A stretch of DNA of 64,000 nt from Heterotrichella gracilis (lineage: Eukaryota; Sar; Xanthophyceae; Tribonematales; Xanthonemataceae). The stretch is taken from contig JAULBX010003777.1 in assembly GCA_032358255.1 (NCBI GenBank), positions 1-64,000 on the forward strand, given 5' to 3'. Below, piece after piece: positions 1,532 to 59,615 of the stretch (position 1 is the stretch's first letter; every line of letters begins with the position of its first letter). The translations under genes were made by a program, and so were the position numbers. A model generated the notes under the pieces. It saw only the letters and a list, made by a program, of their open reading frames with translations. It made no database searches and was not told the origin of the DNA.

Positions 1532-4245
1532 TTAGCTGCTGTCACGGCAGTAGCAGCAGCAAAACCCGTCGTGGCCCAGCAGCGCAAAGTAACCCCCTGT
1601 GGGGCACCATGCCACAGCGCTGGCCCTGAACTGGGGAATGGGCACGTGTACACAGGAGGCTCCCTCTGGGGTCCACAGGTATGCCCTGCCCCCACCCGTG
1701 CACACAGCCAGGCGCGTGCTGTGGGGGTCCCACTCCACCGCTGTGACGGGTTTGGCCTGGATGGAAACGGAGCAATGCAAACACGTAAGTAAATAATGGA
1801 AAATGTGAAAAAAATGGATGAATAAGGACATAGCCTGTTGGTTAGTGTACAAAAGGAAGGGCATTCCTCTGTCAGCATTTCCTAACCCACTGCCATGATG
1901 GATCTGGATGAGGAGAGCAAGAAACGGTACAGGCATGGCGCTGCCCAACATTCGCAGGGTTCCTCGGCCCAAACAGGCAACAAAAACACCCCAAGGGACC
2001 AATAAGGATTATATTGCATGGGCAGACAAAGCAACAGCAAGCCAGCAAATCCGACGCTCTCCCCTGGATTGAGTAACCCTCACACCTAAACCCTGAAGCC
2101 CATACCTGAATGAGGACAGCGCACAGCTCCACCCCTCATACCTTAAACCCTAAACCTTAAACCCTAAACGCACATACCTGGACGAGGACAGCGCACAGCT
2201 CCAACCCCCGTACCCTAAACCCTAACCCAAAACCCTGTACCCTAAAAGCCCATACCTGGATGAGGACAGCGCACAGCTCCACCCCTCGATGCACATCCCA
2301 CACCCACATGACACTGGGCCGCTTGTCATCCACGGTAGCTAGAAATGCGCCATCATGGCTCCAGGCAACAGTGCCAATCCCGCATTTGCTCCAAGGGGTG
2401 GAACCTGTGGCGCCCTTGTGGTGTGCGGGGAGGTCAACAGGCGGCTCGCAGATGACGAATTTGGAGCGCGGCGGCCTTGGCTTGGCGTCGGCGGCTTGCC
2501 TGCAATATGTTTAATTACACAAATACCTGCAGTCTGCATAATTTTAATATATTGAACACTCCTCATACATAATGTACTCTTGATTCCAGCAGTAAAGCCT
2601 ATCGGATTAACCTTTTTGTAATTACTATTGCATGCGTTCCAGCAGCAGCCAGAGTAAATGCCCTTTGTTTCGGTCCAGCTTGCAGATCCAGATCTGGTTG
2701 GTCTCACATCATCAAATTTTTGATGAATTTGAATGTAAAACGACATTGCCCATGTCGTGCGCATGCTTTTCATGACCAAGGAACAGGATTGGGTAAGTGC
2801 CTATTGCTCTCACCTGCATGTGGAAGGTGGCAGGTTGAGGGAGGGGTAAACACCTGGCTCCCTTGCTTGCTCCAGAACCTCCTTATATATGACCAGGTTG
2901 GGTCGTCCATCAGCCGCAGGGGGGTGGGGTAGGGCTGCCAGCGGGGTCCATGTCACTTGATTCAGCACATGGAGGTCCTGCATGAGAGTGGCGAGGAGCA
3001 TTAGCTAATGGTTCTCATGGGTTCATCAATACTAGGGAAATGCTGTTGTTTTATTAGTTTTATAAGTATCCTGAATGAGAAACCACTGGTCACGGTAAGT
3101 GGTAAAAGGATGATGGGGAAGCAAAGACACATGCAAGGTAGGTTACCAGATTGCTAGCAGGCATTCTGCATGGTGGTGATTGTGACACGACCAATGTAGA
3201 AAAGCAATAAGCTGCCATCGGGATTGTGACAGCTACTTGGGTCTCATGCACACCTTGTTGTAGCTCCCAATGGCCAGCAGCTGGCCCGTGGGTGACCACT
3301 TGACAGTCTTCACTGCCATTGCTTCTGCACCTCCACAGAACTCGCCCTCGCATGAGCCCTGTGGTGTGTTGATGAGCACCTTGTGGCTGGTAGCGTCCCA
3401 GGCAGCAATTGCGGTGCTGTCGGGGCTCCAGCATATGTCCTCGAGGTCGTCTGTTGCGGTGAAGAAACGGGACACGCACTCCCAGCTGTTGGTGTCGTAC
3501 ACTGCTATCAGGTCCCGCAGGGCTTCACGCTGCACAGGGGAGAGTGTATTCAGAGAGATGCAGCACATGCTGCAGGTTTTCACGCTGTACAGAGAGGGTG
3601 TGTTCAAAGATGTGGCACGGCTGGCATGTAAGCAGAGGTGAATCAGGTAGGCATGTAAAAATGCCTGGAACGCATGGCTAAGTCTACAGGGATGGTGCAG
3701 CTGTTCGACGCCTATGAGGTGGTTAGCAAGGAAGCAGGTATGCAAGGATGCCCTTGTACCTGATAAGCAGGCAGCAGGATGTAATGTACCTGAGCAACGG
3801 CAAGGTAGTCTGCATTCAGGCTGAAAGCCACTCCTCTGCTTTTGTGTTTTGGTCCTGGTAGATATGAGCAGCTACTTGTAGCCAGGTTGCATACTGTGAG
3901 TGCAAGGCCAAAGTCTGAAACCAGCACCACCTGGCTACCAGACGGGCACCAAACTGCGTGCTGCACCCCTGTTATGCTTTGCTGTATTGAGGCTGACCAG
4001 CTGCTGTGACTGATATTGAAGCACTGAAGCCTGTTGGACTGGGCACACAGGATGAGCTTGGAGTGGGGGCACCAAGCAATGTGTTGGACCTGCTCTGTAC
4101 AGGTGAACGTTTGTACAACTTGGAGGTCATTTGCTGTCCGAATGACAAGCCTGTTTCCTTCAACCGAGGCGATGTAGTGCCCATCGGGTGAAAACTTGAG
4201 AGATGAGATGGGTCCTGAGCAGGCACAGACCTGACTGAAGTCCAT
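1532..4245 (-). CDS. WRAP73: WRAP73/WDR8-like WD40-repeat protein
   Basis: Five exons on the minus strand: 4245..3790, 3529..3254, 2977..2814, 2499..2256 and 1756..1532. They keep phase and give 454 residues, close to the ~460 of animal WRAP73. The start MDFSQV, followed by KFSPDG, matches the family N terminus. KCGIGTVAWSHDG and VMWVWDV (exon 4), then AVEWDP, LAVCTGGG and YLWTPEG (exon 5) match the C-terminal WD blades. The family is a beta-propeller scaffold that works at centrosomes and spindle poles and partners SSX2IP/Msd1 in microtubule anchoring; that role is known from other organisms, not shown here. It is divergent from the ZUP1-like gene across ~555 bp. Odd features are multiplied donor copies after exon 4 and a duplicated acceptor before exon 2, both listed separately. 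Confidence 0.88.
2101..2290 (-). repeat. triplicated exon-4 end with telomere-type spacers
   Basis: Read on the minus strand, the last ~30 coding bases of WRAP73 exon 4 plus its donor (CAG|gtatg) occur three times. The genuine copy is at 2251-2290, and intronic copies lie at 2172-2210 and 2101-2140. The copies differ at a few positions. The spacers are mainly CCCTAAA-type repeats (plus strand). Each copy keeps a plausible GT donor. Confidence 0.9.
3522..3612 (-). repeat. duplicated acceptor region of WRAP73 exon 2
   Basis: The acceptor and first bases of exon 2 (plus-strand 3522-3557, ttcacgctgcacaggggaga) recur diverged at 3577-3612 (ttcacgctgtacagagaggg). The second copy lies in the upstream intron and also keeps a usable pyrimidine-rich AG. 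Confidence 0.7.
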
Positions 4246-4800
4246 TCAATCTTGTTATATGTTGGCGTCTGAATGCGCGCTTGAAAATTGTCAGAACGAT
4301 AGGGCAGACAGTCTAAATATATAAAAAAAAAGGTGTCTGTCTTTGCATGGTCTCTACGTAAAGCACGCCTGGCAAAACAACGAATGTGTCACCCACGGCA
4401 TGCAAAACCGCATGCGACCTGATGTCAGCTCGAGCTCGAGGACCCTTTTGTCTTGCAATGGGAGCCCATACGACTCGCTTGCTGCACCACGGTTTCAGCA
4501 ACATCACCAGGTTCAGTTAGAGTGACTCCTGGTTTGTGGCCTCCAATGCCCGCAGATGATGCATGCATATAAACCCAATTGGGGTCCCGTTCCGACGAAA
4601 TACAGTCAACCCGTAGAAAACCCACCTGGCTATCGATATTGCTTGCCAACCTTTGCATCCTCCTTATCACCGTTTAACCCGATTTGCTTTCTAAAGGCCG
4701 TGTAACTTGCAAAGTAAGGCCTTTCCTTGCAAGTTACACAGAGGCCTCACAGTTGCGTGTGAAACACATCAAAATAACGTATGCATGGTTGCAAGGAGCG
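4246..4800. promoter_or_regulatory. divergent intergenic region of WRAP73-like and ZUP1-like genes
   Basis: These 555 bp separate two start codons that face away from each other, so they should contain both promoters and 5' UTRs. A T/A-rich block at 4313-4332 (atatataaaaa on the plus strand) reads as a TATA-like element about 70 bp upstream of the WRAP73 ATG. A near-palindromic purine/pyrimidine stretch (agctcgagctcgag) lies at 4427-4440. No other element is recognisable. Confidence 0.4.
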
Positions 4801-7800
4801 ATGGATAGCCCTGAGCTGGAAATAGTGGACGAGAAGAGCCCCTGTCCTGTCTGCTCGCTGCTCGTCCCAACGTCTGAGATCCAGGCCCATTGCGATGCTC
4901 ACTTCGCTACTGAGGAGCTCTCTGAGCCTACATCAGAGGCAGCATACAGCTCTGGTGGAAGTAGTTGGGGAGACGATGGCCTGGTGGAGTTGATCACCTG
5001 CCCTTACGGGTGTGGTGTTCAAGTGCATGTGGACGACCTTGAATCGCACGAGCTGGCACACAGGTAAGCCACTGGCCTCAACGCAAAACAGGTCCATTCA
5101 CAGTTTGTTTTGCACAACTGGTGTGTACAGTCATGGCTCCATCTGCAAACCCAGGAAACAACACACACAGGCTTTGGTGAAGTAAGGGCTCAATCTAGTG
5201 CTGTGTTTTGGCACGCATTACCTACCAGCAGTGTGCTGGGTCACTCACTCGTGTTGACCATAAAACTAACTTGACTTTAAACAGGCTGAATCAAGAGGAG
5301 GCCTCCAGCAGCCGAACAATAAGCGACCAGCAGGAGAGGGAGGGCTTTGAGAAGCTGCAAGCAAAGTATGGCTTCTCAACAAAGGTGAGTAACTGCACGA
5401 CTCACTAGTGCACATCAACCCGAATGCATGGACAAAAAACTTGTGTGGCTGCTTGGGCATGGCCCCACAACTTATCACACAATACCGCACCATACCATGG
5501 CACAAAGCATCACACTCCATCTCAACACACCACACCATACTTCACGGCTCCCCACCCAATGACATCCGGTACCTTGCCTTGTGCAGAGGCCTGGCAGCTG
5601 CTTCCGGTGCGGCGGGGAGGGGCACTGGTCGACTGACTGCCCAAGTAACCCTCACCGCAAGAGGTAAGCCCGGCCAGCAAAACTAACCCCAGTGTAACGC
5701 ACTGCAATGTTGGGACACCCATACCACCACCAGCATTGCTCGCATGCGCGCCACCAAGAATAGGCGAAGCGAAGCCATACCTGGTGTCAGTCATTATCAA
5801 CCGTCAGTCACCCATCCCGTCACACACTTCCAAAGCTACTTCAACCATGTTTACAGACCCCATGCCATTGTCACAGGCCCAAGCCCACGCCACCGCTACC
5901 CTAGACTTTGATTCTAACTCTGAACCATTATGCCTATTCCTTTGTGTATGCGCATTACAGGGCCCAGGCGCGTACCATTGATCCCACGCCAGCTGCCATC
6001 ATATCCACTCAGCAGCCAGCAGGCCGCTACTCCATCCCCGAGGGTATTATCCCACTCCTGGCTGCCTGCCTGCGCAATGGACCACCGGGGTCAGCCGCAG
6101 TGCTGTCAGGTAAGCCCTTAGCTAGGGTTTTTGAGCTAGGGTTTTGGGCACGGGGCATCATCCCACTCCTGGCAGCCTGCGCAACGGGCGACCGGGATCA
6201 GCTATAGGAGGTACAAATGGGATTTGGGGGTATGGCTTTGGGAGAATTGCCACCGGAGCTTGGTGGAGTGCTGTCATGTTGACTCTTACCTGGGGATAGC
6301 TGCGGTACTAATCAGTGCACTTGTCACCATCTTTGCAAATCTAATCTATTGGAAATGATAGAATGGTCCCAAAATGTTTTTTCTTTGGTTGGTTGCTCAC
6401 CAACTGATCATAGTTTCTCCTACTTGCCCCAGGCCACGTGGAGCATTTCTGCTGTGGGCATGAGGATCGGGGGTGGGGTTGTGGCTACCGCAACATCCAG
6501 ATGATGGCCTCTCACCTCATCGCATGCAGGCCGGTGAGGACATCCCCAACTGATTTTGCGTATTTGTCTTCAGAAGGAAATCTACTGTCATGTAACTTAG
6601 TATCAATTTATCTTGGGGGTTCATGTTTGTCTTGTACCCATTCACTTCCTGCACTGGGATGGGGTAGGGGTTGGTGTGTGGCTCTTGCATTCAGTTGCAC
6701 CCCATCACATGCAGGAAAGCGGGACCATTACCTCTGCTGTTTATCATTAATATGTAATTTGTTTGCGCTGACGTCCTTGCCTGCCCCCCTGCCACAGGAT
6801 CTGCGCGAGGTGCTGTTTGGCGGGTTCGGGTGGGTGGCTGACATACCGGCGCTGCAGGCATGGGTGGAGTGTGCGTGGCGGGAGGGGTTTGATGCACAGG
6901 GGTGCGAACAGCTGGGGGGCGCTCTGCAGGTACGTGCCAAATGTTGTCGAAATTATATACAAGTAATGTGCCCTAGTGGTGGAATTGTGGCAAAGAACTT
7001 GGAGTCAGCTCGCATTTCACAGGTTTATCTTACTGCGCATTCGTCCAAATCACTGCTATTTGTCACATATTGCGGGGGCCCCGCCGGGGGGGTGGAGTGC
7101 GTGTAGCGGGAGGCGTTTGACGCACAGGGTTGCAGGGGGGAAACTGCAGGGTGCATGCGTAAATGCACTCTAGTGCAAATCATGGTGGCAGTTGTGGGAT
7201 AGGTCAGCAATGTGCACATTTGTATCTGGCAGGCATCGCTCGAGACACTACAAAGTCACTGTGCGATGATCCTCCGTTTCCTCTGCAGGCCGGGCGTAAG
7301 TGGGTAGGCACCACCGAGGCGGCAACGCTGCTGCGCCAGTTTGGAGCTAGGGCACAGATTGTGGACTTCACCGGGGGAGGAGGAGGGGCATCAGGTGGGG
7401 GGTGGGGAGGGGCACACGTGGGAGAAGCAGGGCGTCATGGGAGGAAGGGGGGGGCTTTTCAGGCTCATGGGGCAATTGTATAGTGCAGACCTAGTTGGTC
7501 TTGGGGCTATGGTGTGTTTCAGGCAAACAAACCGGATGTTCCATTAAGCACATGGGACTGAGCAATTTGTGCATGTGGCTGCGCATGCACCTTCAGGAAT
7601 CCAATTCTTGCCCACAGATTGCATTGACCACGCACATGTGGCTGCGCAGATGCCCATCCTGGCGTGGCATGCGATGGCTGCGGCGTGGCGCCAATCACCG
7701 GCCCCCGCTACAAGAGCACCACGCTTCCAGACTACGACCTGTGCGCCAGGTGTCACGCAGGCAGCCAGGCGCGCGCGGTTGGGCCCTTCCAGTGCATACA

Positions 7801-9595
7801 CCCCCCTGGGGGCCCACCCGGTGGGTGCCAGGGGGGCGCGTCACTTGGAGGCGAGGGGGCAGCAGTGTCAAATGGAGGGTTTTTTATGCAGGAGGGCGGA
7901 GGGGGTTCCCATGGGGGGCAAGGAGGTTCGTCCAATGGAGGGTCTGGGATGGGAGGAGGGGGTGACTCTCACGGGGGCCCTGGCAGGGGGGGAGGGGGCG
8001 GGAGACGAGGGGGGCGTGGGAGGGGCGGGCTGCGTGGAAGGGGGGGCGACCATCATCCACACGATCGGGGGAGGCAACACGCTGTGCTGGGGGAGTGGGT
8101 GTGGCGCTACTTCGCCGGCCAATCGCAGCCCTCCGTCCCTCCAGCGCCTGGCTCCCCCCCTGTGGTGACCCTCACTAATAAGGCCCCCTTGTATTTCCAG
8201 CACGAGGGCCACTCCCGCACCATCATCGGCATGGAGAGGCGCAAGGTGTGTGGTGGGGCGAGGGAAGGGGGGATCACTCGTAGGTGGCCAGGGGGACTAA
8301 AATGCAAATCTTAATGCAACAGGGAATATAACTTGTAATGCAACTTATGTTGCGTTGTAGTTCCCCGAGGTGGCGCTTGGGTAGGGAGTGGTTGTTACAT
8401 GCAGCCTCTCTACATAAAACAGTATCAGTACCCTAAACCCTATAACCCTACACCTACTCTGGGTTAGTAGTAGGCCAGGGGTTGCTGATGGCCTGCCGGC
8501 GATGCTGGAATGCAGGAGGGTGCTATGGTAGGATTCTGTGCTGGCAGGTGGCTACTGTGAATGATTACCCTGGCTGTGTTGGGCTCTGTGTTGATAGTGG
8601 CTGTTAGTCGACCTTTTAGCTGGGTGACTATTGGTAGATGAGGGGTAGACCCTCTTATCGACTGATGGTCACCCCAGCTCAATGTTCAACTACCAGCCAC
8701 AATAAATACAGAGCCCATTCCAGCCAAAATACTCCTTCACAGTAGCCATCGGATAGCACAGAATCCCTGCTATGGCACCTGGAATGACCCTTACCCTACA
8801 CAACCTGAGCCTGCAGTCGGAGGATGATGTGGCGCCCCGTTACACGCTGCTGGTGCTTCGACCCAAAAAGACTCAAAACCCTAAACCAAAAACCTTAAAA
8901 ATCACAGGTGAAAGGTGAGGTGGCGCCCACTACACCCTGCTGGTGCTTGGCCTAAACCCTATAAAACCCTAAACCAAAACCCTAAACCACAGGTGGAGGG
9001 TGAGGTGGCACCCCGCTACACCCTGCTGGTGCTTCCACTTCTAACCCTAATTCTGAACCTTAAACCGCAGGTGGAGTTGACCTGGAACCCCCCCTAAAAC
9101 CCTATTTCTGAACCCTAAACCGCAGGTGGAGGGTGAGGAGGCGCCCCGCTACACCCTGTTGGTGCTTGACCCTGGGATGCCATCAGCCTGCCTGGCACAG
9201 GCGCTGCGGGAGGGTGCCGGGTGGCAGCGCCTGGTGAAGCGGGGGCTGCACACGCTGACAAAGCCAGAGTACCAGGTGAGGGGCGTGGGGGGTAAGGAGT
9301 GGCGTAAAGACGGGATTTTTGTAGCGCAGGCCCCATACCCCTGCAGTAACGCCATTTAAACTGGGGGGGCAACGACCATTGCACTGGCTGCTACACCTAC
9401 TCCCAGTCGTTTTTCTTCTTTTTCTTTCCTGTCCACCCCATTATCAATTACCTATCCGTTGTGTTCCTTGTTGATTTTAGTGCTGTGCCTGACACCTGTG
9501 TGTGTGTGTGTCAGTTGATGTATGTGGAGGAGGGGGTGGCAGGGCAGGCGGAGAGGCAGGCGCTCAAGGTCATTGCGGCAGCAGAGCGATTCTAG
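4801..9595 (+). CDS. ZUP1: ZUP1/ZUFSP-like deubiquitinase with CCHC knuckle and inserted ZZ finger
   Basis: Ten phase-consistent exons (4801..5063, 5285..5384, 5587..5663, 5961..6109, 6433..6533, 6798..6929, 7289..7394, 7650..8245, 9126..9275, 9515..9595) encode 584 residues. The N terminus has two C2H2-type ubiquitin-binding-like fingers (CPVC...H...H and CPYGC...H...H). A CCHC knuckle follows (CFRCGGEGHWSTDC, exon 3). The C78-type peptidase domain shows all landmarks: EDRGWGCGYRN with the catalytic Cys (exon 5), EGFDAQG (exon 6), QIVDF (exon 7), HEGHSRTIIG with the catalytic His (exon 8) and LVLDPG with the Asp (exon 9). Between QIVDF and the His sits a ZZ-type finger (CDGCG, RYKS, DYDLCARC) plus a glycine-rich linker. 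Human ZUP1 cleaves K63-linked ubiquitin chains in genome maintenance, and that activity is inferred here. The start at 4801 is chosen for the acidic MDSPELEI; an upstream in-frame start at 4684 is possible. Confidence 0.88.
6043..6212 (+). repeat. intronic copy of ZUP1 exon 4 end
   Basis: The exon-4 stretch at 6046-6105 (attatcccactcctggctgc...) is repeated diverged at 6157-6207 (atcatcccactcctggcagc...), inside the following intron. The junction between copies is built of gctaggg/tttgagctaggg units resembling degraded TTTAGGG. Confidence 0.75.
6858..7165 (+). repeat. intronic copy of ZUP1 exon 6 end
   Basis: The exon-6 end with its donor (6860-6940, from ggtggagtgtgcgtggcggg) has a degenerate copy at about 7089-7165 (ggtggagtgcgtgtagcggg). 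The second copy carries small deletions, and similarity continues past the former splice junction. Confidence 0.75.
8812..9175 (+). repeat. ladder of copies of ZUP1 exon 9 start with CCCTAAA spacers
   Basis: The genuine exon 9 begins at 9126 (caggtggagggtgaggagg). Upstream intronic copies lie at about 8815-8860, 8906-8950, 8990-9035 and, shortened, 9069-9093. The spacers contain repeated cctaaac/ccctaaa. The later copies keep a cag|gtg acceptor-like junction. Spacing shrinks from about 90 to 55 bp toward the real exon. Confidence 0.9.
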
Positions 9596-9692
9596 CCACT
9601 GGGTCCTGATCCCAATGCCGCATCCCAGGCTGGAGCGCTGCTAACACCACGGCACATGTGGGCATCCTGTGCCATGAGGCGAAGCTGCTTGG

Positions 9693-15548: not shown

Positions 15549-15565
15549 AGCCCACCACCCAAACC

Positions 15566-18059
15566 ATGGCTGCCCAGCGCGCTCCCTTCCCAATCCACTC
15601 CCTGCCAGAGCCCCTCCTGCAGGAGGTGCTGGGCCACCTCCCAGTCACCGAGCGGGTGCGTTCCCAGGCAGTGTGCAGACGCTGGCGGGACGCCCTACAG
15701 GGGCCCGGTGCAGCATGGCGCAGCATAGTCTGGCCCTACTACCTCTCAGACTGCCCTGCAGACCAGCGCCAGCTCGTGGCGTTGCTGACAGGCAACCAGG
15801 CCACCTTCCCCCTTCCTCTGCGAGAGGTTCTGGCAACCGGGACAGCGGCACTACTTTCTCTGGCAATCGGGGCAGCAGCTATGGTAACTTTACAACCTCG
15901 GGTGACCCCGCGCACTCTCAGTCCCCGTCCGGCAGCAACAGGCCCGTTTGCCCCTGGAGCACCAGGTCAATTTCCTCCATGTGGGCCCCTGGAGGCAGCA
16001 GTAATAAGGCCCTGCAGCCGAGGTTGACCCACACCAGCCACCTGTGCCTGGACAACGCGCAGGAAGCAGCCTACCCCCTGATGCAAGCTGCCAGCACAAG
16101 GCACCTGCAGTCCCTGGAGGGCATGGTGCTCATCTCGAGAGGCGCCGACACCTTGGTGAGTGCGCTGCATTATACCCTAACCCCTAAACCCTAAACTCTA
16201 AAACAGCTCATCTCGAGAAGCACCGACACTTTGGTGAGTGGCGTTGCATTGTACACCTGATGCACGTAGCTGATACACTGCGTGTCGGGGTGTCAGTCTT
16301 TATATGAGGTTGAACGTTGGTACTGACCACAGGGCAGCTCAGGGTTTAGGGTTCTAGGGCGTGGCCATGGCAAGCCTTAGGGAGCATGGTACAGAGCTGT
16401 ACCCTGGTGTCCGACCCTGCAGGTGCGTGAGGTGGCAGCTCTGGGCAGCTTCCAGGGCCTGCAGTCCCTGGGGCTCAAGTGGAACCTCTACCGGAGCACG
16501 ATCGAGCAAGTGGAGGGCTGCGGGAGGGCCATCGCCGCCCTCACCAACCTCAAATCCCTGGTGTTGAAGCTGGTCAACGTGGAGGATCCCAGCATCGGCA
16601 CCTTTGAGGCAGCTGTGGAGTCGCTCTACAGCTTGCAGCTCCTCACCTACCTGGATCTGTCTGTGGAGCACTGGGAATCGGCCGGGGATGGGGATGGCGA
16701 CTGGGGATTCCTGCCGCGCCTCCTTCCCCTGGCCAGCCTGTGCACCCTCCGCCTGAGCGTGAATGGCGCGAGGTTGCCGGATGTCGAGGACCATGGATGG
16801 CTGGTTAGCCTTGAAGACATGCCCCAGCTCAGCGAGCTCAGCGATCTGACCATAACCCTGTTGGCAAAGCGCATGCCCAAGCTGCTCCCAATGGCGCACC
16901 TCACCTCCCTCACCAGCCTGACTCTGATGCTGACCAGCTGCCTCACCGGGGCGCCCGTCTACGCGCCGGTGCACCTCCCGACCCTTGAGCTGCCAGCCAC
17001 GCTCAAGTCTTTGATCATCAGTGGGTGTGAGATGGTTCCCAGCATGCCCCAGCTGGCCATGGCTTTGGCCCCGCTCACCCGCCTCACCTCCCTCCACATG
17101 CCCGTCTACCCCGGCATGGACCTCCAAGGGACCCTCACCCACCTGAATCAGTTAAAAGAGCTCTATTTGGATGATGAGTGCAGCCCCAAGGGAACCTACC
17201 GCCACAACAGGATCCCCGCAATGTTCACCCTGCCACCCCTGCCCAGCCTGCGCTCGCTCCGCCTAGGAAACAGTCCCCAGGGGTCCAGCAGCTGGGCGCT
17301 AGACATGTGGATGTCATACAACCACCCGCATCACCTGATCACCTTGGCCAGGAGCTCCTGGCACGAGGGCAGCGTGTGCGAACGGGCCAGCAGTGTGCTT
17401 TTGGCGGAGTGCAGCGTGATGGTGACAGTCTGGGGCGCTTCGGGCTTGACCTACAACGTTGACCTGGGCCGAGCCCGGCTGGCGTGGTTTCTGGCGGAGC
17501 ACGCGCAGTTTTACAATCCTCTGGAGCTTGCCCGGTTGGTGGTGCCCAATGCGCAGGTGAGAGCGCTGGAGTTTGCTCGCTGTTTGGGGTTGAGGATTAG
17601 GGTTTAGGACCATGAATAGCCACACACCCTAAACGATGATTTGGGCAATGCGCAGGTGAGGGCGCTGGAGTATGCTCGCCGTGTAGGGTTTAGGGTTGGG
17701 ATTTAGGGTAGTGAATAACATAAACCCTAAACCATGATGTGGGCAATGCGCAGGTGAGGGCGCTGGAGTTTGCACGCCAAATTGTGGACGGTGCCCAGGT
17801 GGCAGCGGAGGTGGGGGCGGTGCGCAGCTTGTTGTCCAAGAGCGAAAGCCCCGGGGTTCCAGAAGCAAACGCCTTAGGGTTGGGCGTGAGGCAAGGGGGC
17901 AGTAATATGGGCAATGGAAGCAGCGGCACTCCATGCGTGGCGCCGCGCAGCGCTGCCGCCAGCATACCTCATCCTAGTGCCAGCCACTGTACGAGCGCCC
18001 TTTTGGGGGTTACTCTGAGTGATTGTGTGGGCTTTTCGCCTGCGTACTCCCCACGCTAG
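15566..18059 (+). CDS. F-box / leucine-rich repeat protein
   Basis: The first exon starts MAAQRAPFPIHSLPEPLLQEV and continues with a canonical F-box (SLPEPLLQEVLGHL...VCRRWRDAL). The LRR part lies in 16423..17556 (378 codons; LTNLKSLVLKL, LTYLDLSVEHW, LTSLTSLTLML, LTRLTSLHM). The last exon is 17754..18059 (VRALEFARQIVDG...). F-box proteins dock on SKP1 in SCF ubiquitin ligases, and the LRRs would select the substrate, which is unknown. The region 15880-15925 switches reading frame. Either a 38-bp intron (15884..15921) or a frameshift must join the F-box to the segment ending at 16155 (QSLEGMVLISRGADTL). The model is firm for the F-box and LRR exons and weak at that join. Two splice-edge duplications are listed separately. 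Confidence 0.7.
16127..16240 (+). repeat. duplicated exon end forming a possible 27-nt cassette exon
   Basis: The exon end CTCATCTCGAGAGGCGCCGA... with donor gtgagtg (16129-16160) recurs at 16207-16240 with four or five substitutions. The spacer is ccctaacccctaaaccctaa-type sequence and ends in aacag. The copy therefore has its own AG in front and GT behind, and is exactly 27 nt (16207..16233). Confidence 0.88.
17544..17785 (+). repeat. three copies of coding segment bounding an LRR-gene intron
   Basis: A ~35-bp segment containing aatgcgcaggtgag and gcgctggagt occurs at about 17548-17582, 17646-17681 and 17744-17778. The spacers hold ttagggtttagg/accctaaac motifs. The first copy carries the donor (GCGCAG|gtgag) and the third the acceptor (gcgcag|GTGAG), so the intron is bounded by direct repeats. 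Confidence 0.92.
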
Positions 18060-49116: not shown

Positions 49117-52100
49117 TCATTGCTTGGCTGGCACGTAGCGTGGGTTGGCTGCATGCATGCCGCAGCTGACCTGGTCCAGCGGTATGTGCCCCTTGGACAC
49201 CACCTTGTCCATCAGCCGCTCAGACTCAACCGCGTGGCGGTACCGGCCCTTGTAGTAGGCAAGCCTGCAGGAGGAGGGGGGTAAATCTATTGTTATCATA
49301 TGTACAATGGAGCTGCATGCGGCATATGGATAAAGATATACGGCGTATGGATAAAAAAATGGAAAGTAAACTAGTATGAAGACAATTATGTGTCCCTGTG
49401 TCCAACCCACAGCCCCCCACCTGTCCTGCCAACAGCGAGGGGAAGCCACAAGAAGTATCATACCTCTTCGTTTATGTTGATTTGTTGATTTTGCCCCTTG
49501 TATACACCACCTTGAGATGCAGCAAAGCGCATTAATTTTTTGTATATGAATCAACCAGTCCTCGCCCCTCCGTTCCACGCTTACCTGTCCTGCACCGATC
49601 GTATCAGCCCGTTGTGCCACTTGAAGTGCTGCACCTTGCAGAAGTAGGCCGCCATGACTGGCTCCCACAGGCTGCTGTCGTTGCGGCTGCTGGGGTAGCG
49701 GTACCTGGGGGGGTGAAGGGGGGGGGAGGGGGAGTAAGCCCGTGCCATGTGCAGGACCAATATAATTGCCGATTTTGTTGTCTAAATGCGCCTTTGCAAA
49801 ACAGAAACCTATACAACTGCTGGACAATAATCTAGTAAATTTGATGAAGTATTTTTCTTTGTGGCAAAAGAGCACGGCGGCAAGGGTACATGGTAGAGCT
49901 ACCCGCCCGAGAGGGTACATGTGTCAATACAGAGGCCCATGATTCAAAGTTAATGCCATGCAATTAGGGCTTGTAAACCCTAGGGTTTAGGGTTTAGTAT
50001 TTAGAGTCCCCGCACCTCCTGTGGTACTTGTAGTATGGCGTGAGCGGGTACAGGTCCTCCCCACCCAAATACCCTCCCCTAGGGCTCAGCTTGTTAGGGT
50101 CCGAGGGGCCGAAGTAAACCCTAGCGTCTGCCGGGAACACAATCTTGTGGTTGCCCTGGTTGGATCGCAGGTATGCCTTGAAGGCCGCCACCTTTTTGAA
50201 CTTGCCCTTTGAGGTCTTGCGCAGCACGTTGCAGTGCTTTGGGAACTGCTCAAACACGCTGGGGGCGGGCTTGATCTGTGGGTGCGGAGGGAGGGCTTAG
50301 TTGCTGGAATTGCTATTTTTTGTGTAGAAAAGGGGGTGCGCGTGGTGGAATGTACAAGAGGGGTGGAGGGGGGTGAATTGGTAGTTGATTGGCATTTCGT
50401 GAAGGTCTTGCGCAGCACGTTGCAGTGCTTGGGGAACTGCTCAAACACGCTGGGGGCGGGCTTGATCTAGGGGGAGAAATGGAGGCATTAGTCTTCTTTC
50501 GTGTTGGGAGAGGTGTTGCATGAGGTGGAATGTACAAGGGGAATGGGAGGGGGGGGGGCAATCATCCTTTGGCTTTGACTTTTTGGATGTCTTGCGCAAC
50601 ATGTTGCAGTGCTCGGGGAACTGCTCAAACATGCTGGGGGCGGGCTTGATCTGTGGGTGCGGAGGGAGGGAAGTTTTGTTTTGCTTGTGTGTATGCTTGC
50701 AAGGCAGCTTTGTTCCCAATTGGAGGGTATCACCTCATGCAACACGAAGAAATGACTGGGCATGGAGGCGTGGAGGGGGGCTGCTTCACAACGTCAGGAA
50801 GTGGCTGTGGCAGGACTGTACAGAGCCAACCCTTGGCTAGGGTTCACAGCTTTTCCTCAGAACCTCCCTTGGCTGGGATCATAAGTTTTCTCACAAAATT
50901 GCCCTAGGCTAGGGTAGGTAGAGTTTACCCACCTTAGCCAGCTCCCCGTTCTCCGTGACCCTGTCCTCCAGAAACCCCCTAACCCAGCTCTGACCCTTGG
51001 CCTCCAGCCCCTCCAGGAACGGCCTAATTTGGGGGGTCATGTACACCTGGAAAACGGGGAGGAAATATTGAGGCTTAGATGTAGGGTTTGGGGGTTTGTT
51101 TGGAATACCAGGTACCACGCTGGCTGTGTTGCTGGGGAACCCATCCGCATCTCCAGTGCCCACCCAGACGCGTGCAGCTGAACCACCACAAACCCTACAC
51201 CCTACACCCTAGATCCAAAACCCTATACCCTCCTCCCTTACCTGGAACTCATCTGCATCCGCGATGACCACCCAGTCCTGTGGGTTGTGCACCTGGTCGA
51301 TCAGGATCTTCAGCTTCAGCTTCAGGTGGCCCTCGGAGGAGTACTGGCCATACCAGATCCTGCGGGAGGTGGTGGTGGGTGGATATGGCGGGTGGAGGGG
51401 TGAAAGAATGGAGGATCATGGATGCACGCGGCAGCTCCCTTTCAAGGTTTGTCAACAAGGATTTTAGGGTATTTCTTGCACCTACCGGTAGGATAGCAGC
51501 TAGTACGAGGCCAGCACCTCCTCACATGGTCCTTCAGGGTTTAGGGTTGCCACATAGGGTTTTAGGGTCTTCTCTTGCAACCTACCAGTAGTCCAGCTCC
51601 TCATACTCCAGTATGGCCAGCACCTTCTCCAGGTGGACCCTTAGGGTTTATGTTTTGCAAGGTGAGGTTTTCTGACTTTTCTCCTTTAGGGTTTAGGGTT
51701 TAGGGTTTTTTCCAGGTAGGGTTTAGGGTTTTACAATGCCCTCACCGGTAGTCCAGCTCCTCATACTCCAGTATGGCCAGCACCTCCTCCAAATGATCCC
51801 GCTTCACCCCCGGGTTGCCAGGATTGTGGTTCACCAGCAGAAGGAACCTGTCCTTGCCAATCCCCAGGTGGTAGTAGTGGTTGATCCAGTGGCGCAGCAG
51901 CGCAGCACCGTCATAGTCGGCTGAGATGAGCGAGTAGAGCCAGATGTTGAAGGGGCCTTGCTGCTGCTGCTGCTGTTGTTGCAAGGAGCGCGCGTGGGGG
52001 AGGGCGTGGGTGGTGGCTGGGTCCCATGGCCGACGGGGGTCCAGGGGTGCGGCTGTGAGTGGGGCTGTGGGCGGGGCTGCGTCGCGCGGGGTGCGGTGGG

Positions 52101-52263
52101 GCGCCGCTGCTGCGGCTGCACTTGAGGGTGATTGTAGTTCTGTCTGTGAGGTGGGGTGGTGCCACTGGTGGGGTGCTGCACCCGTGGGGTGCGGGGTGGA
52201 GGTGGGGGGCCACAGCAGGCAGCTGAGTAGCACAACTGTGGTGGTGCGGGTGGCCCGGCCCAT
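49117..52263 (-). CDS. glycosyltransferase, GT2/GT92-like fold, with DxD motif
   Basis: Six exons in phase (52263..51746, 51359..51242, 51046..50933, 50275..50016, 49704..49585, 49264..49117) give 425 residues. After a short hydrophobic N terminus (TTTVVLLSCLLWPP), a Pro/Ala-rich stem and a poly-Gln run, the catalytic part shows IWLYSLISADYDGA, LLRHWINHYYHLGIGKDRFL and DWVVIADADEFQ. The last contains the DAD metal/nucleotide-sugar motif typical of these families. Later conserved-looking parts are VMAAYFCKVQHFKWH and the C-terminal YYKGRYRHAVESERL. Predicted to be a type II Golgi or secretory enzyme; donor and acceptor sugars are unknown. Exons 1 and 4 and the 3' end have nearby copies. Confidence 0.78.
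50205..50655 (-). repeat. three ~190-bp-spaced copies of glycosyltransferase exon 4 start
   Basis: The exon-4 beginning (genuine, starting at 50275, IKPAPSVFEQFPKHCNVLRK) recurs upstream at 50467-50401 and 50651-50585. Identity is high, including the ag|ATCAAGCCCGCC acceptor junction. The sequence between copies is also related (ggaatgtacaaggggaatgg at 50527 versus ggaatgtacaagaggggtgg at 50347). Confidence 0.92.
51484..51800 (-). repeat. three copies of glycosyltransferase exon 1 end with TTTAGGG spacers
   Basis: The genuine exon end (51746-51795; minus strand EEVLAILEYEELDYR then gtgagg) has an almost perfect copy at 51588-51640 and a damaged one at 51484-51535, each followed by a GT donor. 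The spacers carry repeated ttagggtttagggttt, most densely at 51643-51732. Confidence 0.93.
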
Positions 52264-54045: not shown

Positions 54046-57000
54046 ATGGCTCAGCCCAGTGGGATCGAACCCTCCCCGCCACAGAATCTGCCGGAGCCAG
54101 GGGAGATACTTGTGCAAGACTTTCGAGAGCCTGGTATATTGCACGAGCTGAAGCCAGGTGGCACCATCCGCCTGCTGCAGGTGAGCTTGCACTATGGTGT
54201 CGTGACCATCCAGTGACAAGAGCTTGCTTCCCGCCATTAGCTAGTGGAACGTCTTCCAAATTTCCAGGCCATGCTATACACATGGCAAGTGAGAGTGTAT
54301 AGTTAAGTAAGCTTGGGTTACCAGTGCACAAGTGCAACCACCCACTGCCACTTGCATGGGTGCGTGGGAGGCAGCCATGCCCTGTCAGACTTGCCTGGTT
54401 GGGTATTCTCTGTGCTTCTTTTGCAATGCTCTCTCCGCTTCCACCTGCTGCCGCCACGCCCCTGGCGCATTTGGCCAATCAGCATTGCACACATTCCCCC
54501 ACACACACCCTCACCCTCCCTCCACCCCCCACCCCTTCCCCCCACCCGCTGCAGTGGAACATTGAGCGAGGCTATGAGCTGCCCACTATCATATCCCACA
54601 TGCTGGCGGTGGACGCCGACGTCATTGCACTGCAAGAGGTAGACATAGGCTGCGAGCGAAGCGGGTTTGTGGACACAGGTGGGGTGGGTATGGGGGGTGA
54701 GGTGGGGGTGGGTGATGGGGGACGGGCGGGTGTTGTGTGTTGGCTGAGGCGAATGTGATAGGCTTGCAAGAGGTGGGTATAGCCTGAGAGCGAAGCGGGT
54801 GTATGCATACAGACGAGGGTGGGAGGAGTCGGGGAGGGCAGGGTGGGGAGGTGGACGTCATGTGGCGGTGGATGGGTGCTGATGTGGTGGCCCCACAGGT
54901 GGCCATGGGCTGTGGGGGAAGCAAGCTTGTAGATACAGCTGGGATGTGGGGTGCTGGGTGGCAGGTGGGTGTCATGTGGCGGTGAGTGTTGATCTGATCC
55001 CTGCAGGAGGGGGGCCATCACCCCCCCGATTTCATGGGCACTGGCTGTTGGTCAACCTTTACCCCTCCTGCCCTCACCGGTGCACATGCCCTTAGACACC
55101 GTGCCCATAGACATGGCCCGAGGTAACCTTCATGCGCCCCCTTCCTGCCACACAGGCACCGCAATTGCCCAGGCGCTGCGCCTCAACTACGCCTTCTTCT
55201 GCGAGTTCAAGGAGGTGCACTCGCCACTCAGGGCGCCCAGGGCACAGGTGCAGGGCAATTGCTGCATTTTTGTTGCATATTAATTATTATTGCCAGTAAA
55301 TATTGTCTGGCGTTTTCATTAGTGCATTCCCAATTTCACTGCTTAGATTCTCGTTTTTATAATGGGGATGTAAATGTAAGCAGGACTGTTTTGAACGAAA
55401 ACAACCTGCGCCTGGTCCACCATCAGCATTACCCGGTGGACTGGAATGATGATCATTATTGATGATTCATTACCCCTATGCCTAGTAGAGCAAAATCCAA
55501 TTCTGGTCCTGCGTCACAGCCCTCCAACCTCCAAATCTCACGATCCGCAGGGCGGGGGGGTGCACGGAAATGCGCTGCTGTCCAAATACGACCTCCACAA
55601 CCTGCGCCTGGTCCACCACCAGCACCATCCAGTGGATTGGAACGACCCCAACCACTCGCTGTCCAGGCGCGAGCCCAGGCAAGGGGAGCGGGCCGTGCTT
55701 GTAGGGGAGGTGGCCACGCCCCTGGGACCCCTGGTGGCATACTGCGCGCACTTCGAGGTGGGTGATTGGGGAGATGGGGGTCGTCATGGGGTGGGCTTTA
55801 TGTGCATTGTTAGCTGTGGCGGTGTTGTGTGGGGTCCAGTCTGGTGCGCAACTTTTAGGTGCGAGCCCAGGCAAGGGGAGCAGGCTGTGCTTGTAGGGGA
55901 GGTGGCCGCACCCCTGGGGCCACTGGTGGCATACTGCGTGCACTTCGAGGTGGATTGCACACTGTGGAGCATGGTGGGTGGGGTGGGGGACTAGCGAGGT
56001 AGATTAGTACGCGCACTCTAAGCTGCTGGTGGTGGTGTGTTGGGCAAGCCTGGTGTGCGCCGCACTGTGCAACCCACCGGCAACCCTTGCGGCATTTTCA
56101 AGCCGTGAGCCGCATTGAGCCACACACCACCGCAAATGTTGAGGGTGTGCGGTTAGGTCTGCCGTGGTGTGTGCAGGACAGCAGTGCGGGGGCATTTGCC
56201 ATTGCTTTCACATGCATCCCATTAGAGCCAGGCATGCAGCTGTGAATGTGACCCGCTTTCTGCAGGTGTTTTGTGGCATGCTTGCGCGCGCGCAGCACTT
56301 TGCCGACATCGTGAGGGACGCCAAGGACCAGGTGGTACAGGTGAGACCCCAGAAAGCCGTGCAAACCCCAAATTGACGTTATGAAAATGGTACCCTGGTA
56401 AACCCTAGGATAGGCAACCCCCTAGCTGACCCCTTAGCCCTGCTACCCTAGCCACTGCCCCAAGCCTGCAGAGCAAGCACCACCAGGAATTGCGGGCAAC
56501 CCAAACATATGTGGAGAGACAAGACTCTAGCCAAACTTTACCCTTGCAATCCTAGGGTTTGTTATTGCCCGCCTGTCACCAACAATTTTCAGAGACGAAA
56601 TGTACACATCTTGCCCTGTCACCCAAAGCGCTTTGAGTGTACGTACATGCAGGGGGAGTAGAATAGGATTAGAGTACATTCTATGTTTTACGAGGCCATG
56701 CCACCACTGATCCATGTCATGAATCCAATGCGTGCAGGGCAAGTACCATCAGGTGATCATGGGCGATTTGAACACCATGGCGCACGGCGTTGCACGCCTG
56801 TCACCGGCGCTGTGCAGGGACAAGATGCGGTGGCGGACCCTGGGGATGTACGAGGCGGAATTCTGGGATGCAAATATCCTGCAGGTGCGCACATGTCACC
56901 CAGCCTGGCCTTGAACAAGTGCGCTGATTAAGGGGACTTGACGTGGTGAAGGGCATTGCCTGGGTCTCTCAGGGTTTGAAATTTTATAAATGTATCAGTT

Positions 57001-59261
57001 TATCGGCTCTGATTGATTTATAATAGTATTGTACACATAAAAATAGATCACCATCCAATTGTAGTACCTCAAGGGGCCTTCCTCTTCCTGTCATACATCA
57101 GCAACTGCGCACAAGACAGGCAGCGCATTGGGTTCTGTTGTATATATACACATCTTTTATCATTTCTGCAGGTTCCAGATGCAGAATATGACCCCGCGCG
57201 GGATGGGAAACCCAAGGGTGTAATGGAGGAAGGGGGCGAGGATGGAGATGCGCTGAGCAAGAGTGGGGATGGAAAGGAGCTATTGGGATCAGTTGGGGAT
57301 GAGGAGGAGACTCTGGGATTAGAGGCGGGTCCTGTCCTTTTCATCTTGGCTTGTTGCATATGGGTGTGAATGCTGTGCACAGCCGCTGGGGGTGCTGCCC
57401 CTGTCCTGCCGTGCCTCCTTTGGCTTTTGAGAGCCACAGCGGGTAATCAATGGTAAATCAAAATGATGGGGAATTTGCTCATTCTTCTCTTTATGTTTTC
57501 TGCCCCTGTCCCGGCGTGTTGCCATGGCACTCAAGACAAGGCGCTAAGTGCCATGGCAAGTCCTTGCGTACAGGGTATTCATGAAAATCTGTAATGCTCA
57601 ATGTGCTGATCCTTCTTCTCATTTTCATTGTAGGCGGGTCCTGGCCTGCACAGCATGCACAGCGTACACAGCGTGGAGGCGCTGGAGGCGCTGACCACAC
57701 CCAGGGTGAGGTTTGGAAAGGATGGGATCGGGGAGGTGCAGGCGGTGGCAGACCCGGACTCAGACGAGGAGGTGGCCACGGCAGGGGAGGGGACACACGA
57801 AAATGCTGAGGGGGGGGCACAAGGGGAAGGATCACATGGGAATGGTGACGGGGGCACATCAGGGGAGGCGGTGCATAGAAATGCGTTTGGGGAGGTAGCC
57901 AACAGTTCTGGGGGTAGAGGTGGAGCCAGTGGGTACCCAGGGGGGTTGCAGCAGGAAAGCACAAGCGGGGAGGAGGAGGGAGTGGTTGCACCGGTGCACC
58001 AGTCCTTTGCGCACGATGCAGCCTTGCACCAACAGCTGCCCCGGCTGGCCATCACCCCCCCTCCATCCCCCCTTCCGCCATCCCCCTTGCCCGCCGAGCC
58101 CCCCTACAACGACAAGATGCACGCCTGGGGACTGAGCAAGGAGATCTGCCGGGACTTGCTAAATCCAGGTGGGTATTTTATTTATGCACATTCGTGTTCT
58201 TGTTCTTATGTATGTCACCCACAAAGCACGTTTGGGCGCATATCCAAACGAGGGTTCGCCGCAAGGGGAGTAGACTGTGCGCCATTGGCCAAGCGCTAAA
58301 ACACCTGTCTCAGCATATCGGGGACACGAGTCTGGATGAGCCTCTTGAAGAGCACGATGCAGTGACGCATGTCCCGATATGCTCAGACAGGTGTTTTTAC
58401 CACTTGGCCAATGTTGCACAGTCTACTTCACTTGAGGGCCATGCTCACCCAAAGCTCAAGGGACCAAAGGGTTGTCTGCAAGTAAGTATTCCTTGGGGCT
58501 AGCCTATTATGCACAGGGACCATGGAGGTAGCTTAATATCAAGGGAGTTTCTATCTCTCTGGCTGTAGTGTGCTGGTGTGGCAGTACTAGGGGCATTGCG
58601 TACATGCAGTAGCTCTAAACCCTGAAGCCCTAAATCCCTGGACCCTACCCCACCACCTTTTGACAGGGAGCATGACCACCATCACGCTCGACCACCCCAG
58701 CTGTTAACCCTAAAACCAGTAAAATCCTGACTCCTACCCCACCACCTCCCTGCTGGAAACACCAAGGGCTACTCTCAAGGTTATGATGACCAGGAGCACT
58801 AATTCCATCCCTTTTTACTTATGCTAAACCCCGTGAAATCTTGTTCCCCAGGTTTCCATGACCCCTTTGACCCAGTGACCACCATCACGCTTGACCACCC
58901 CAGCTACCGCACCTTTGGGCGCAGCCTCATGAAGGGCAAGCTGTACACCCTAAACCGTGCAACCCTACCCCACCACTTTCCTACAGGGAACATCAAGCGC
59001 TGCTCTAAGCTTTTGATGTCCAAGGGCAGAGGACTAAACCCTTGAATTTTCTGCCATCCAGGTTTCCACGACCCCTTTGACCCAGTGACCACCATCACGC
59101 TTGACCACCCCAGCTACCGCATCTTTGGGCGCAGCCTCATGAAGGGCAAGCTGGACTGGATGCTGCTGCGGCGACTAGAGGTGCAGCGCCAGGTGGTGGG
59201 CAACCACGACTACCGCGCATCAGATCACAAATGGCTGGCGGTGGACGTGCGATTTGACTAG
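54046..59261 (+). CDS. endonuclease/exonuclease/phosphatase (EEP) family enzyme
   Basis: Nine exons in phase (54046..54180, 54555..54678, 55156..55247, 55551..55757, 56266..56340, 56738..56884, 57172..57324, 57634..58168, 59062..59261) give 555 residues. EEP landmarks in order: WNIERG (Asn), ALQEVD (catalytic Glu), VHGNALLSKY, VAYCAHFE, VIMGDLNT (Asp/Asn) and the terminal ASDHKWLAVDV (SDH motif). Between GDLNT and the C-terminal block is a ~240-residue acidic/Gly-rich insertion (VPDAEYDPARDG..., EEGGEDGDALSKSG) unlike compact family members. The fold includes deadenylases, sphingomyelinase-like and DNA-repair nucleases; I cannot choose among them. The join of exons 7 and 8 requires a GC donor (57325). 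Many exon edges are duplicated in the introns. Confidence 0.82.
54636..54950 (+). repeat. copies of EEP exon 2 end
   Basis: The exon end gaggtagacataggctgcga...gacacag|gtgggg (54636-54690) recurs diverged at about 54762-54815 (gaggtgggtatagcctgaga...) and 54893-54950 (caggtggccatgggctgtgg...). The intervening ggtgggtg-rich sequence is also repeated. Confidence 0.75.
55400..55960 (+). repeat. copies of both ends of EEP exon 4
   Basis: A copy of the internal segment cctggtccaccatcagcatt... (55409-55450) precedes the genuine exon (55608-55650). A copy of its 3' end (gcgagcccaggcaaggggag ... cacttcgaggtgg) at 55860-55955 follows the genuine one at 55669-55760. Exon 4 is thus flanked by fragments of itself. 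Confidence 0.9.
58269..58427. repeat. inverted repeat of tRNA-like sequence in an EEP intron
   Basis: The left arm 58269-58326 and the reverse complement of the right arm 58370-58427 are about 85-90 percent alike over ~57 bp, with a ~43-bp loop. Each arm contains ttggccaag-g-taaaacacc, resembling a tRNA D-arm/box A region, followed by cctgtct-agcatatcggg. It is probably a foldback built from two tRNA-derived (SINE-like) units. Confidence 0.7.
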
Positions 59262-59615
59262 GCAGCTGATTTCGGGGGATGAATCAGGTATAGCGTCGGC
59301 ATGGGGTGGCATTTTAGGCGCAGCCACATGAAGGGCTGGCTGGACTGGATGCTGGTGCTGCGGTGCAGCGGCGGTGGCGGGCAACCACGAATACCGCGCA
59401 AGTGAACAAGTTGCTGGCGGTGGGCGTGCGCTTTGACTGAGCAGTAGCGCTGGGGTCTTTTTCAATCAGATTTGGGATTGATCGCAGCGAGCAAGGATAT
59501 GGCAATTTTTGGCAGGATGTGGGTTTTTTTGGGCTCAGCCTGTTGAAGAGCAAGCTGGATTCATTCCAGCAATTTAAGCTGCCAGTGGACGTGCGTTTGA
59601 CTGTGGCATGAGTCA
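58650..59615 (+). repeat. tandem ~210-bp units containing EEP exon 9 start, plus degenerate 3' copies
   Basis: Genuine exon 9 starts at 59062. A near-identical copy with its own ccccag acceptor lies at 58852-58945, and a shorter one at about 58665-58710. The following intronic sequence (ccaccac...ggaaacacc/ggaacatc...caagg) is repeated too, so whole ~210-bp units were duplicated. After the stop, damaged copies of the exon 3' half lie at 59310-59440 and 59530-59612. Confidence 0.92.

What the first reader, a model, noticed from the sequence alone, without database searches (positions are those of the whole stretch)
2101..59612. Recurrent exon-edge duplication with telomere-type motifs across many unrelated genes
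At least ten genes in one window carry tandem, degenerate copies of an exon's edge in the adjoining intron, splice site usually included. Examples: WRAP73 2101-2290, ZUP1 8812-9175, F-box/LRR 17544-17785, carboxypeptidase 19204-19503, bL21 25790-25950, glycosyltransferase 50205-50655 and 51484-51800, EEP 58650-59615. Short TTTAGGG/CCCTAAA runs often sit between copies. The copies differ from one another, so the process is old and ongoing rather than an assembly artefact. Intron gain by tandem duplication of AGGT-containing coding sequence has been proposed in general. What looks unusual is the genome-scale recurrence and the coupling to telomere motifs, possibly left by double-strand-break repair involving telomerase. 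The mechanism is inference.
Basis: partly seen in the sequence, partly recalled or inferred. Interest (0 to 1): 0.92.

Follow-up and report, generated by a model that had tools for sequence, protein, structure and literature searches.

The report
Telomere-patched tandem duplications enlarging introns
Across this algal-type genome, short stretches straddling the ends of exons have been copied side by side, often with a scrap of chromosome-end (telomere) sequence between the copies, which looks like the scar of a break-repair process that makes introns grow and may now and then create one.

Summary
Clusters of near-duplications occur at 0.30/kb in the window and 0.29/kb in 19 stretches of other contigs; shuffles gave none. 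TTTAGGG is the genome's telomere repeat. Its 7-mer lies in 24 of 55 clusters elsewhere (12.6 expected), mainly between the copies (7.6% of gap bases, 1.5% background). Thirty-eight of 74 duplications span a predicted exon edge (21.8 expected).

Unforeseen: the copy-to-copy distance is bimodal, about 103 and 196 bp; telomeric filler favours the short class.

Best reading: staggered-break repair makes a tandem duplication, telomeric DNA is often inserted at the joint, and the result survives where a working splice site remains. One intron (17557-17753) looks newly born this way.

Telomerase as source is unproven: head-to-head order is favoured genome-wide (263 v 89 matches), but filler shows no polarity (26 v 23) and no priming at donors. 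Exons come from a self-trained gene finder; no RNA, relative or raw reads were available.

The parts
2075..2288 (-). About three degenerate copies of the donor-side edge of the exon at 2256-2499 (WD40 gene on - strand), period 71; TTTAGGG-type runs on the sense strand at 2144-2169 and 2212-2246 between copies
   Evidence: Pfam WD40
6042..6202 (+). Two-copy duplication, period 111, with two TAGGGTT/AACCCTA motifs in the span
8813..9172 (+). Four copies (by eye) of the acceptor plus 5' edge of the exon at 9126-9275 (peptidase C78 gene), with CCCTAAA-type filler between them
16128..16254 (+). Donor-side duplication, period 78, CCCTAA-type block 16174-16196 between the copies
17547..17778 (+). Three copies of an AG|GT-containing coding segment, period 99; filler with TTTAGGG followed by CCCTAAA (head-to-head)
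17557..17753 (+). Candidate newborn intron: donor (copy 1) and acceptor (copy 3) are the same AG|GT of the duplicated unit, register offset 0; splicing would restore the single-copy coding sequence
   Evidence: prediction; no RNA or homologue support
19201..19500 (-). Copies of the acceptor-side edge of the last exon (19106-19267) of a serine carboxypeptidase, period 118-119; TTAGGGTTTAGGG (+ strand) between copies
   Evidence: exon edge supported by homologues
25785..25945 (+). Copy of the acceptor and 5' edge of the last bL21 exon (25909-26025) in the preceding intron, period 119, no telomere motif
41732..42051 (+). Two-copy duplication, period 216 (long class), 90% identical, no telomere motif
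50208..50670 (-). Three copies of an exon edge in the glycosyltransferase gene, period about 190 (long class), no telomere motif
51533..51791 (-). Copies of the donor-side edge of the exon at 51746-52115 (glycosyltransferase gene, - strand), period 159, with several TTTAGGG runs (+ strand) between
54631..54823 (+). Two-copy duplication, period 134, scored as in-register donor/acceptor duplication; doubtful, because the second copy reads like a degenerate exon copy
55401..55953 (+). Two long-class duplications (periods 196 and 192), no telomere motif
58673..59559 (+). Two to three copies of acceptor plus exon edge in the EEP-domain gene, period 231, sparse CCCTAAA motifs, plus degraded pieces further 3'

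Best explanation
These are scars of error-prone repair of staggered breaks. A break with offset nicks is filled in and joined, leaving a direct duplication of the local segment. Telomeric TTTAGGG DNA is often inserted at the joint, giving exon edge - filler - exon edge, and the array can later be duplicated again as a unit. Added lengths cluster at about 103 and 196 bp. Events that leave one working splice site are tolerated, so extra exon-edge copies accumulate as intron sequence; if the unit holds AG|GT, a new intron can be born. SHOWN: the copies, their density in the sample, the two sizes, the excess at predicted exon edges, and telomere sequence at the inner boundary. INFERRED: the staggered break, the end-joining step, telomerase as a maker of the filler, and selection for splice-site preservation.
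For: 98 duplications v 0 in shuffles; equal density in window and 19 other stretches. All 7 rotations of TTTAGGG are the top 7 of 140 same-composition 7-mers in both sets. Eight-unit perfect runs occur on 11 contigs, all within 200 bp of a contig end in telomere orientation. Motifs inside clusters: 31 of 76 in the window (6.3 expected), 52 of 169 elsewhere (20.3 expected); six control motifs show no excess. TAGGG/CCCTA within 8 bp of inner copy boundaries 25, outer boundaries 4; telomeric bases in gaps 7.6% v 1.4-1.6% just outside. 35 of 95 telomere blocks lie between direct copies v 10 of 194 control positions. Introns with a duplication carry the motif in 31 of 50, others in 74 of 328. Exon edge spanned in 38 of 74 v 21.8 expected. 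Head-to-head order 263 v 89 overlapping matches; distinct places on C1-C96 40 v 15. Telomerase (Telomerase_RBD) and Ku domain matches are present.
Against: No strand polarity of filler relative to the copies: 26 agree with 3'-end addition, 23 oppose. No in-register priming at GTGGGT donors, 0 cases. No telomerase-RNA-like flank among the 8-mers listed. In the unbiased letters, opposite-type motif pairs within 60 bp split 4 v 4, with 3 of 3 outside introns against the genome-wide order. Of the inner boundaries, only the start of the right copy is significant alone (14 v 6.4, 6/1000); the end of the left copy is not (11 v 6.9, 86/1000). Exon-edge excess is weak for duplications without telomere motif (18 of 43 v 13.0, 63/1000). 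Motifs are also donor-proximal in introns without a detected duplication (35 of 100 v 14.8 expected), which the model explains only by decay of old events. At sites fetched for telomere patterns, flanking copies were found for 6 of 30 blocks and 7 of 19 loci. Exon edges are from a self-trained gene finder.
Confidence: 0.6

Rival explanations
1. Same repair scars, but the filler is captured telomeric DNA (fragments or extrachromosomal telomeric circles joined in by end-joining), not de novo telomerase synthesis at the break. This differs from the best explanation only in the source of the filler.
For: No polarity relative to the copies; no priming register at donors; in the unbiased set each strand type abuts left and right copies equally often (G 6 and 6, C 10 and 10).
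Against: Two captured fragments of random orientation should give equal head-to-head and tail-to-tail order; 263 v 89 matches were found, 40 v 15 distinct places on C1-C96.
Confidence: 0.3
2. Cause reversed: pre-existing telomere-like motifs in introns are fragile or recombinogenic, and slippage or unequal exchange between them makes the duplications.
For: Telomere motifs are enriched near donors even in introns without duplications. In arrays of three or more copies the filler is part of the repeated unit.
Against: Exchange between two motifs would leave motifs at the outer boundaries too: 4 outer v 25 inner; the outer 80 bp are at background.
Confidence: 0.15
3. A mobile element or introner inserts and makes long target-site duplications.
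For: Two preferred added lengths, about 103 and 196 bp, resemble element-like sizes; introners are known in other algae (recalled).
Against: Within the 254-kb sample, 50 fillers of 25 bp or more gave 20 hits elsewhere: 9 telomere-only and 11 others that are 19-42 bp, mostly low-complexity or telomere-bearing. The whole genome was not searched with fillers.
Confidence: 0.05
4. Ordinary intronic minisatellite growth, with telomere-like motifs kept for a function in splicing or as telo-boxes; the link to duplications is incidental.
For: Exact-phase runs peak at TAGGGTTT, the telo-box core (recalled name), with a non-uniform register. Donor-proximal excess in introns without duplications. C-type exceeds G-type on the sense strand of introns, 119 v 76.
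Against: Telomere sequence is almost never the acceptor (TTTAG in 1 of 378), though GTAGGG is the donor in 13 of 378. Enrichment is at the inner boundary. Three perfect units give 834 overlapping matches genome-wide, contig ends included, against 0 for the reversed sequence.
Confidence: 0.15
5. Assembly artefact from mis-collapsed or mis-joined reads.
For: The assembly is fragmented (903 contigs) and one sampled stretch reads all N. No raw reads were available.
Against: Copies differ at many sites (72-97% identity), and the density is the same in other contigs.
Confidence: 0.03

Closest known systems
Interstitial telomeric sequences inserted at double-strand breaks in mammals (PMC2246262, PMC7215372 and PMC8537989; passages found by term, not whole papers)
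   Same: Short telomere-repeat runs at internal sites, explained by break repair; some flanked by duplications, attributed to staggered breaks; head-to-head runs reported.
   Different: There, simple duplications are a minority: 6 of 130 rodent, 4 of 25 primate and 3 of 66 horse loci (2 more horse loci within complex changes), and the intron share of human loci (31%) is called compatible with random insertion. Here 35 of 95 blocks lie between direct copies and introns are favoured (200 motifs/121 kb v 33/57 kb intergenic or UTR).
Small tandem duplications by CST-guided Pol alpha-primase fill-in at 3' overhangs (PMC8355091, passages)
   Same: Short direct duplications from offset nicks; the fill-in complex is that of telomeres.
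   Different: No telomeric filler and no preferred sizes of 103 and 196 bp are described in the passages seen. The pathway was not tested here.
[quoted passage not shown] PMC4974935, passages)
   Same: Window 17557-17753 has donor and acceptor from the same duplicated AG|GT.
   Different: Here telomeric filler separates the copies, and most events enlarge an existing intron rather than make one.
Direct repeats near intron splice sites (PMC11782384, abstract and passages)
   Same: Direct repeats around intron borders interpreted as break-repair marks.
   Different: Those are 4-30 bp repeats at the two ends of 213 introns; here copies are mostly 30-200 bp, often span one exon edge and often carry telomeric filler.
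Repair-mediated duplication by capture of proximal chromosomal DNA (PMC2671141, search listing and start of abstract only)
   Same: Local DNA duplicated at a break during repair.
   Different: Reported for vertebrates; not compared in detail.

Membership tests
Short interstitial telomeric sequence (break-repair type) | Internal runs of the organism's own telomere repeat | tested here: met
   TTTAGGG at ends of 11 contigs; 95 blocks of 11 bp or more in 254 kb, seven control units 0-3
Short interstitial telomeric sequence (break-repair type) | One-step insertion shown against an empty orthologous site | not testable with these tools
   no relatives are held for this genome
Short interstitial telomeric sequence (break-repair type) | Break ends in register with the inserted repeats | tested here: inconclusive
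   no donor priming, no polarity, non-uniform run ends; no empty sites to align
Short interstitial telomeric sequence (break-repair type) | Distribution compatible with random insertion (as in human) | tested here: not met
   intron 200/121.2 kb, intergenic/UTR 33/56.7 kb, coding 11/66.1 kb; this describes the human set rather than defining the class
Intron gain by AGGT tandem duplication | Donor and acceptor at the same position of two copies of one unit | tested here: met
   17557-17753, offset 0; overall 2 of 378 introns, the second (54679-54812) doubtful
Intron gain by AGGT tandem duplication | Intron absent from orthologues; splicing shown by RNA | not testable with these tools
   no relatives, no RNA data
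CST/Pol alpha fill-in tandem duplication | Dependence on CST, Ku and 3' overhangs | not testable with these tools
   Ku and telomerase domain matches found; CST was not searched
Introner element | Shared insert sequence at many loci | tested here: not met
   no shared filler beyond telomere and mostly simple repeats within the 254-kb sample; not tested genome-wide

The most novel reading that the evidence does not exclude
This lineage has a standing, genome-wide mutational process that inserts about one or two set lengths of DNA (roughly 103 and 196 bp) at breaks near exon edges, each a local duplication sealed with telomerase-made TTTAGGG. The set lengths would reflect chromatin (nucleosome-scale spacing of the paired nicks), and the process would be the main source of intron growth and an occasional source of new introns.
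Probability: 0.25. Interest if true: 0.9.

Novelty: new variant of a known kind. Interest (0 to 1): 0.72.

Why it matters
How introns grow and arise is an old open question, and break repair has been proposed with few worked cases. At the sampled density (74 clusters in 254 kb) this genome would hold roughly 20,000 such scars (extrapolation), a large natural record of junctions. It ties two things usually studied apart, tandem duplication at breaks and interstitial telomere sequence, and adds a measurable regularity (two added lengths) that any mechanism must explain. It can be tested directly by comparing strains.

Tried and rejected
Rejected or not borne out after testing: (a) telomere motif as cause by exchange between motifs (outer boundaries lack it); (b) mobile-element filler (within the 254-kb sample); (c) long class as doubled short class: a further copy lies in the gap in 4 of 24 long-class cases, two of them strong; (d) telomeric TTTAG used as acceptor (1 of 378); (e) priming of telomerase on GTGGGT donors (G-type 5 of 36 v 15 of 232, p 0.16; 0 in-register cases); (f) position polarity of filler (26 v 23); (g) telomerase-RNA read-through (the 25 most shared flanking 8-mers on each side are telomere-like; longer or rarer traces not excluded).

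Led nowhere: ribosomal RNA search (machine error, not repeated); two Pfam calls stopped by stop codons in my coordinates; two calls with badly written terms. Literature: nine searches were answered. In their listings I saw no paper describing telomere-filled exon-edge duplications; listings are capped and the library lacks most subscription papers. Of papers, I saw passages of PMC8226300, PMC2246262, PMC7215372, PMC8537989, PMC8355091, PMC11782384 and PMC4974935, and no whole text. Papers known to me by recall only (rice patch-mediated duplications, plant paired-nick duplications, Daphnia intron gains) were not read.

Choices made after seeing data: thresholds for duplications, exons of 70 bp or more, class limits (under 145, 170-260 bp), and the bimodality test itself. 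L014 (all N) was left out throughout; L009 (GC 0.36, no duplications) is and left out of the gene-based ones. In the pooled runs L032, L037 and L040-L043 were left out; L005 and L006, which overlap, were both kept (no short- or long-class duplication came from them), as were L002 and L029, which overlap by about 0.5 kb.
Full report
WHAT WAS CHECKED. The window is contig 40, bases 1-64000, of an unnamed 68.5-Mb, 903-contig genome. Twenty 10-kb stretches from contigs 1-20 at fixed coordinates served as a sample not chosen for the feature. One was all N and was left out, so 254 kb were examined; gene-based tests also left out L009, so 244 kb. Seventeen 3-kb loci fetched by telomere patterns were used only where said.

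THE DUPLICATIONS ARE REAL AND NOT CONFINED TO THE WINDOW. Self-comparison found 98 near-duplications (30 bp or more, 72% or more, within 700 bp) in 254 kb; three local dinucleotide shuffles gave 0, 0 and 0. They merge into 74 clusters: 19 in the 64-kb window and 55 in 190 kb elsewhere, the same density. Identity of the 74 representative pairs runs from 72 (the cut-off) to 97%, so events are of many ages.

THE TELOMERE LINK. TTTAGGG is the telomere repeat: eight-unit perfect runs occur on 11 contigs, all within 200 bp of a contig end and in the right orientation. Three perfect units give 834 overlapping matches, contig ends included, and the reversed sequence none. All seven rotations are the top 7 of 140 same-composition 7-mers in the window and in the sample. 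By rotation test, 31 of 76 TAGGGTT/AACCCTA motifs in the window (6.3 expected) and 52 of 169 elsewhere (20.3 expected) fall in duplication clusters; six control motifs show no excess. Of 95 telomere blocks, 35 lie between direct copies, against 10 of 194 control positions (score 50 or more). In 56 two-copy cases 7.6% of gap bases are telomeric, against 2.7-3.3% in the copies and 1.4-1.6% in the 80 bp outside. Near copy boundaries the pentamer TAGGG/CCCTA appears 25 times at inner and 4 times at outer boundaries (binomial p 0.0001). Taken singly, only the start of the right copy is significant (14 v 6.4 expected, 6/1000); the end of the left copy is 11 v 6.9 (86/1000); no outer right boundary has it (0 v 5.9). 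This places the telomere sequence at the joint.

EXON EDGES. With no annotation at hand, a small gene finder was trained on the sequence itself; it settled on donor CAG|GTGNGT and acceptor TGCAG|G, 427 exons and 382 introns. Homologues support the edge of the last bL21 and carboxypeptidase exons. One copy spans an exon edge in 38 of 74 duplications (21.8 expected, 0 of 2000 placements as high); 20 of 31 with telomere motif (8.8 expected, 0 of 1000), 18 of 43 without (13.0 expected, 63 of 1000). Donor and acceptor sides are equal (23 and 22). Of 378 introns up to 1500 bp, 50 hold a detectable duplication, and 31 of these carry the motif, against 74 of 328 others. Examples outside the window show the same anatomy: L011 5372-5544 is a 68-bp exon edge with donor, a 37-base filler holding CCCTAAACCCTAA, and a 91% copy.

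AN UNFORESEEN REGULARITY. The copy-to-copy distance is bimodal. Of 100 clusters (244 kb sample plus 17 targeted loci, searched to 1500 bp), 97 lie under 300 bp; a two-component fit gives 103 (sd 19) and 196 (sd 29), and none of 200 bootstraps of a single Gaussian, nor of a gamma, reached the gain in likelihood. The trough at 140-179 bp holds 8, the flanks 35 (100-139) and 27 (180-219). The pattern holds at higher score cut-offs and in the unbiased sample alone (74 distances). Telomere 7-mer between copies: 22 of 39 short-class and 8 of 30 long-class cases in the unbiased sample (p 0.016). Long-class copies are more often wholly coding (10 of 30 v 1 of 39). In short-class two-copy cases copy length and gap are anticorrelated (r -0.73, n 38), so the total added length seems to be what is set, though decay at alignment ends would also produce this. 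A nucleosome-scale origin is a guess.

INTRON BIRTH. At 17557-17753 donor and acceptor come from the same AG|GT of a 99-bp unit present three times, and splicing would restore one copy. This is the Rogers model of intron gain, here with telomeric filler in head-to-head order. It is a prediction without RNA or homologue support. Only 2 of 378 introns show it, and the other is doubtful, so growth of existing introns is the main outcome.

WHO MAKES THE FILLER. For telomerase or another terminal addition: TTTAGGG followed within 30 bases by CCCTAAA gives 263 matches, the opposite order 89 (reversed controls 26 and 20; overlapping matches counted). By distinct places on contigs 1-96, taken from the printed lists, it is 40 against 15, with three spots in both lists. 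Telomerase and Ku domain matches exist; one Ku match reads through two stop codons. Against: filler orientation does not depend on which copy is nearer (26 v 23); donors are not used as primers; no telomerase-RNA trace was seen; in the unbiased letters opposite-type pairs split 4 v 4, those outside introns 3 of 3 the other way. At sites fetched for telomere patterns only 6 of 30 blocks and 7 of 19 loci showed flanking copies at the thresholds used. I leave the source open.

UNEXPLAINED. Telomere motifs are donor-proximal also in introns with no detected duplication (35 of 100 within 50 bp, 14.8 expected). Either these are decayed scars, or the motif has a use near donors.

COMPARISON. Break-repair insertion of telomere repeats is known from mammals, where simple duplications accompany a minority: 6 of 130, 4 of 25 and 3 of 66 loci (PMC2246262, PMC7215372; passages). 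Small tandem duplications from paired nicks depend on a telomere fill-in complex in mouse cells (PMC8355091, passages). A role of break repair in intron number has been suggested for green algae (PMC8226300, passages). The combination, its density in introns and the two sizes set this case apart as a variant of known processes, not a new kind.

Noticed in passing
window, L010-L028 and 17 targeted loci, copy-to-copy distances: Distances between duplicated copies fall in two classes, near 103 and 196 bp, with few between (8 of 97 at 140-179) and few beyond 300 bp (3 of 100).
   Followed up: partly
introns of window and L010-L028: Telomere 7-mers cluster within 50 bp of donors even in introns without a detected duplication (35 of 100, 14.8 expected).
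   Followed up: partly
window 8817-8852, 8993-9028, 51586-51639, 55884-55973, 58852-58956: Some extra exon-edge copies keep frame and splice signals, so the gene finder calls them as extra in-frame exons; they could be used as alternative exons.
   Followed up: no
window 10994-11831: Long degenerate repeat of period about 126/251 bp, mostly in predicted coding sequence.
   Followed up: no
L009 (contig 1, 20001-30000): GC 0.36 against 0.50-0.59 in the other readable stretches, and no local duplications; perhaps an organelle, a contaminant or an element-rich region.
   Followed up: no
genome-wide: TTTAGGG-then-CCCTAAA order exceeds the reverse 263 to 89 matches; some examples have near-palindromic centres.
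   Followed up: partly
window and fetched loci, all telomere-type runs: Short exact-phase telomere runs most often begin at TAGGG or AGGG and end at GGGTTT, i.e. the core TAGGGTTT; the longest runs (18 bp or more, 25 runs) do not show this clearly.
   Followed up: partly
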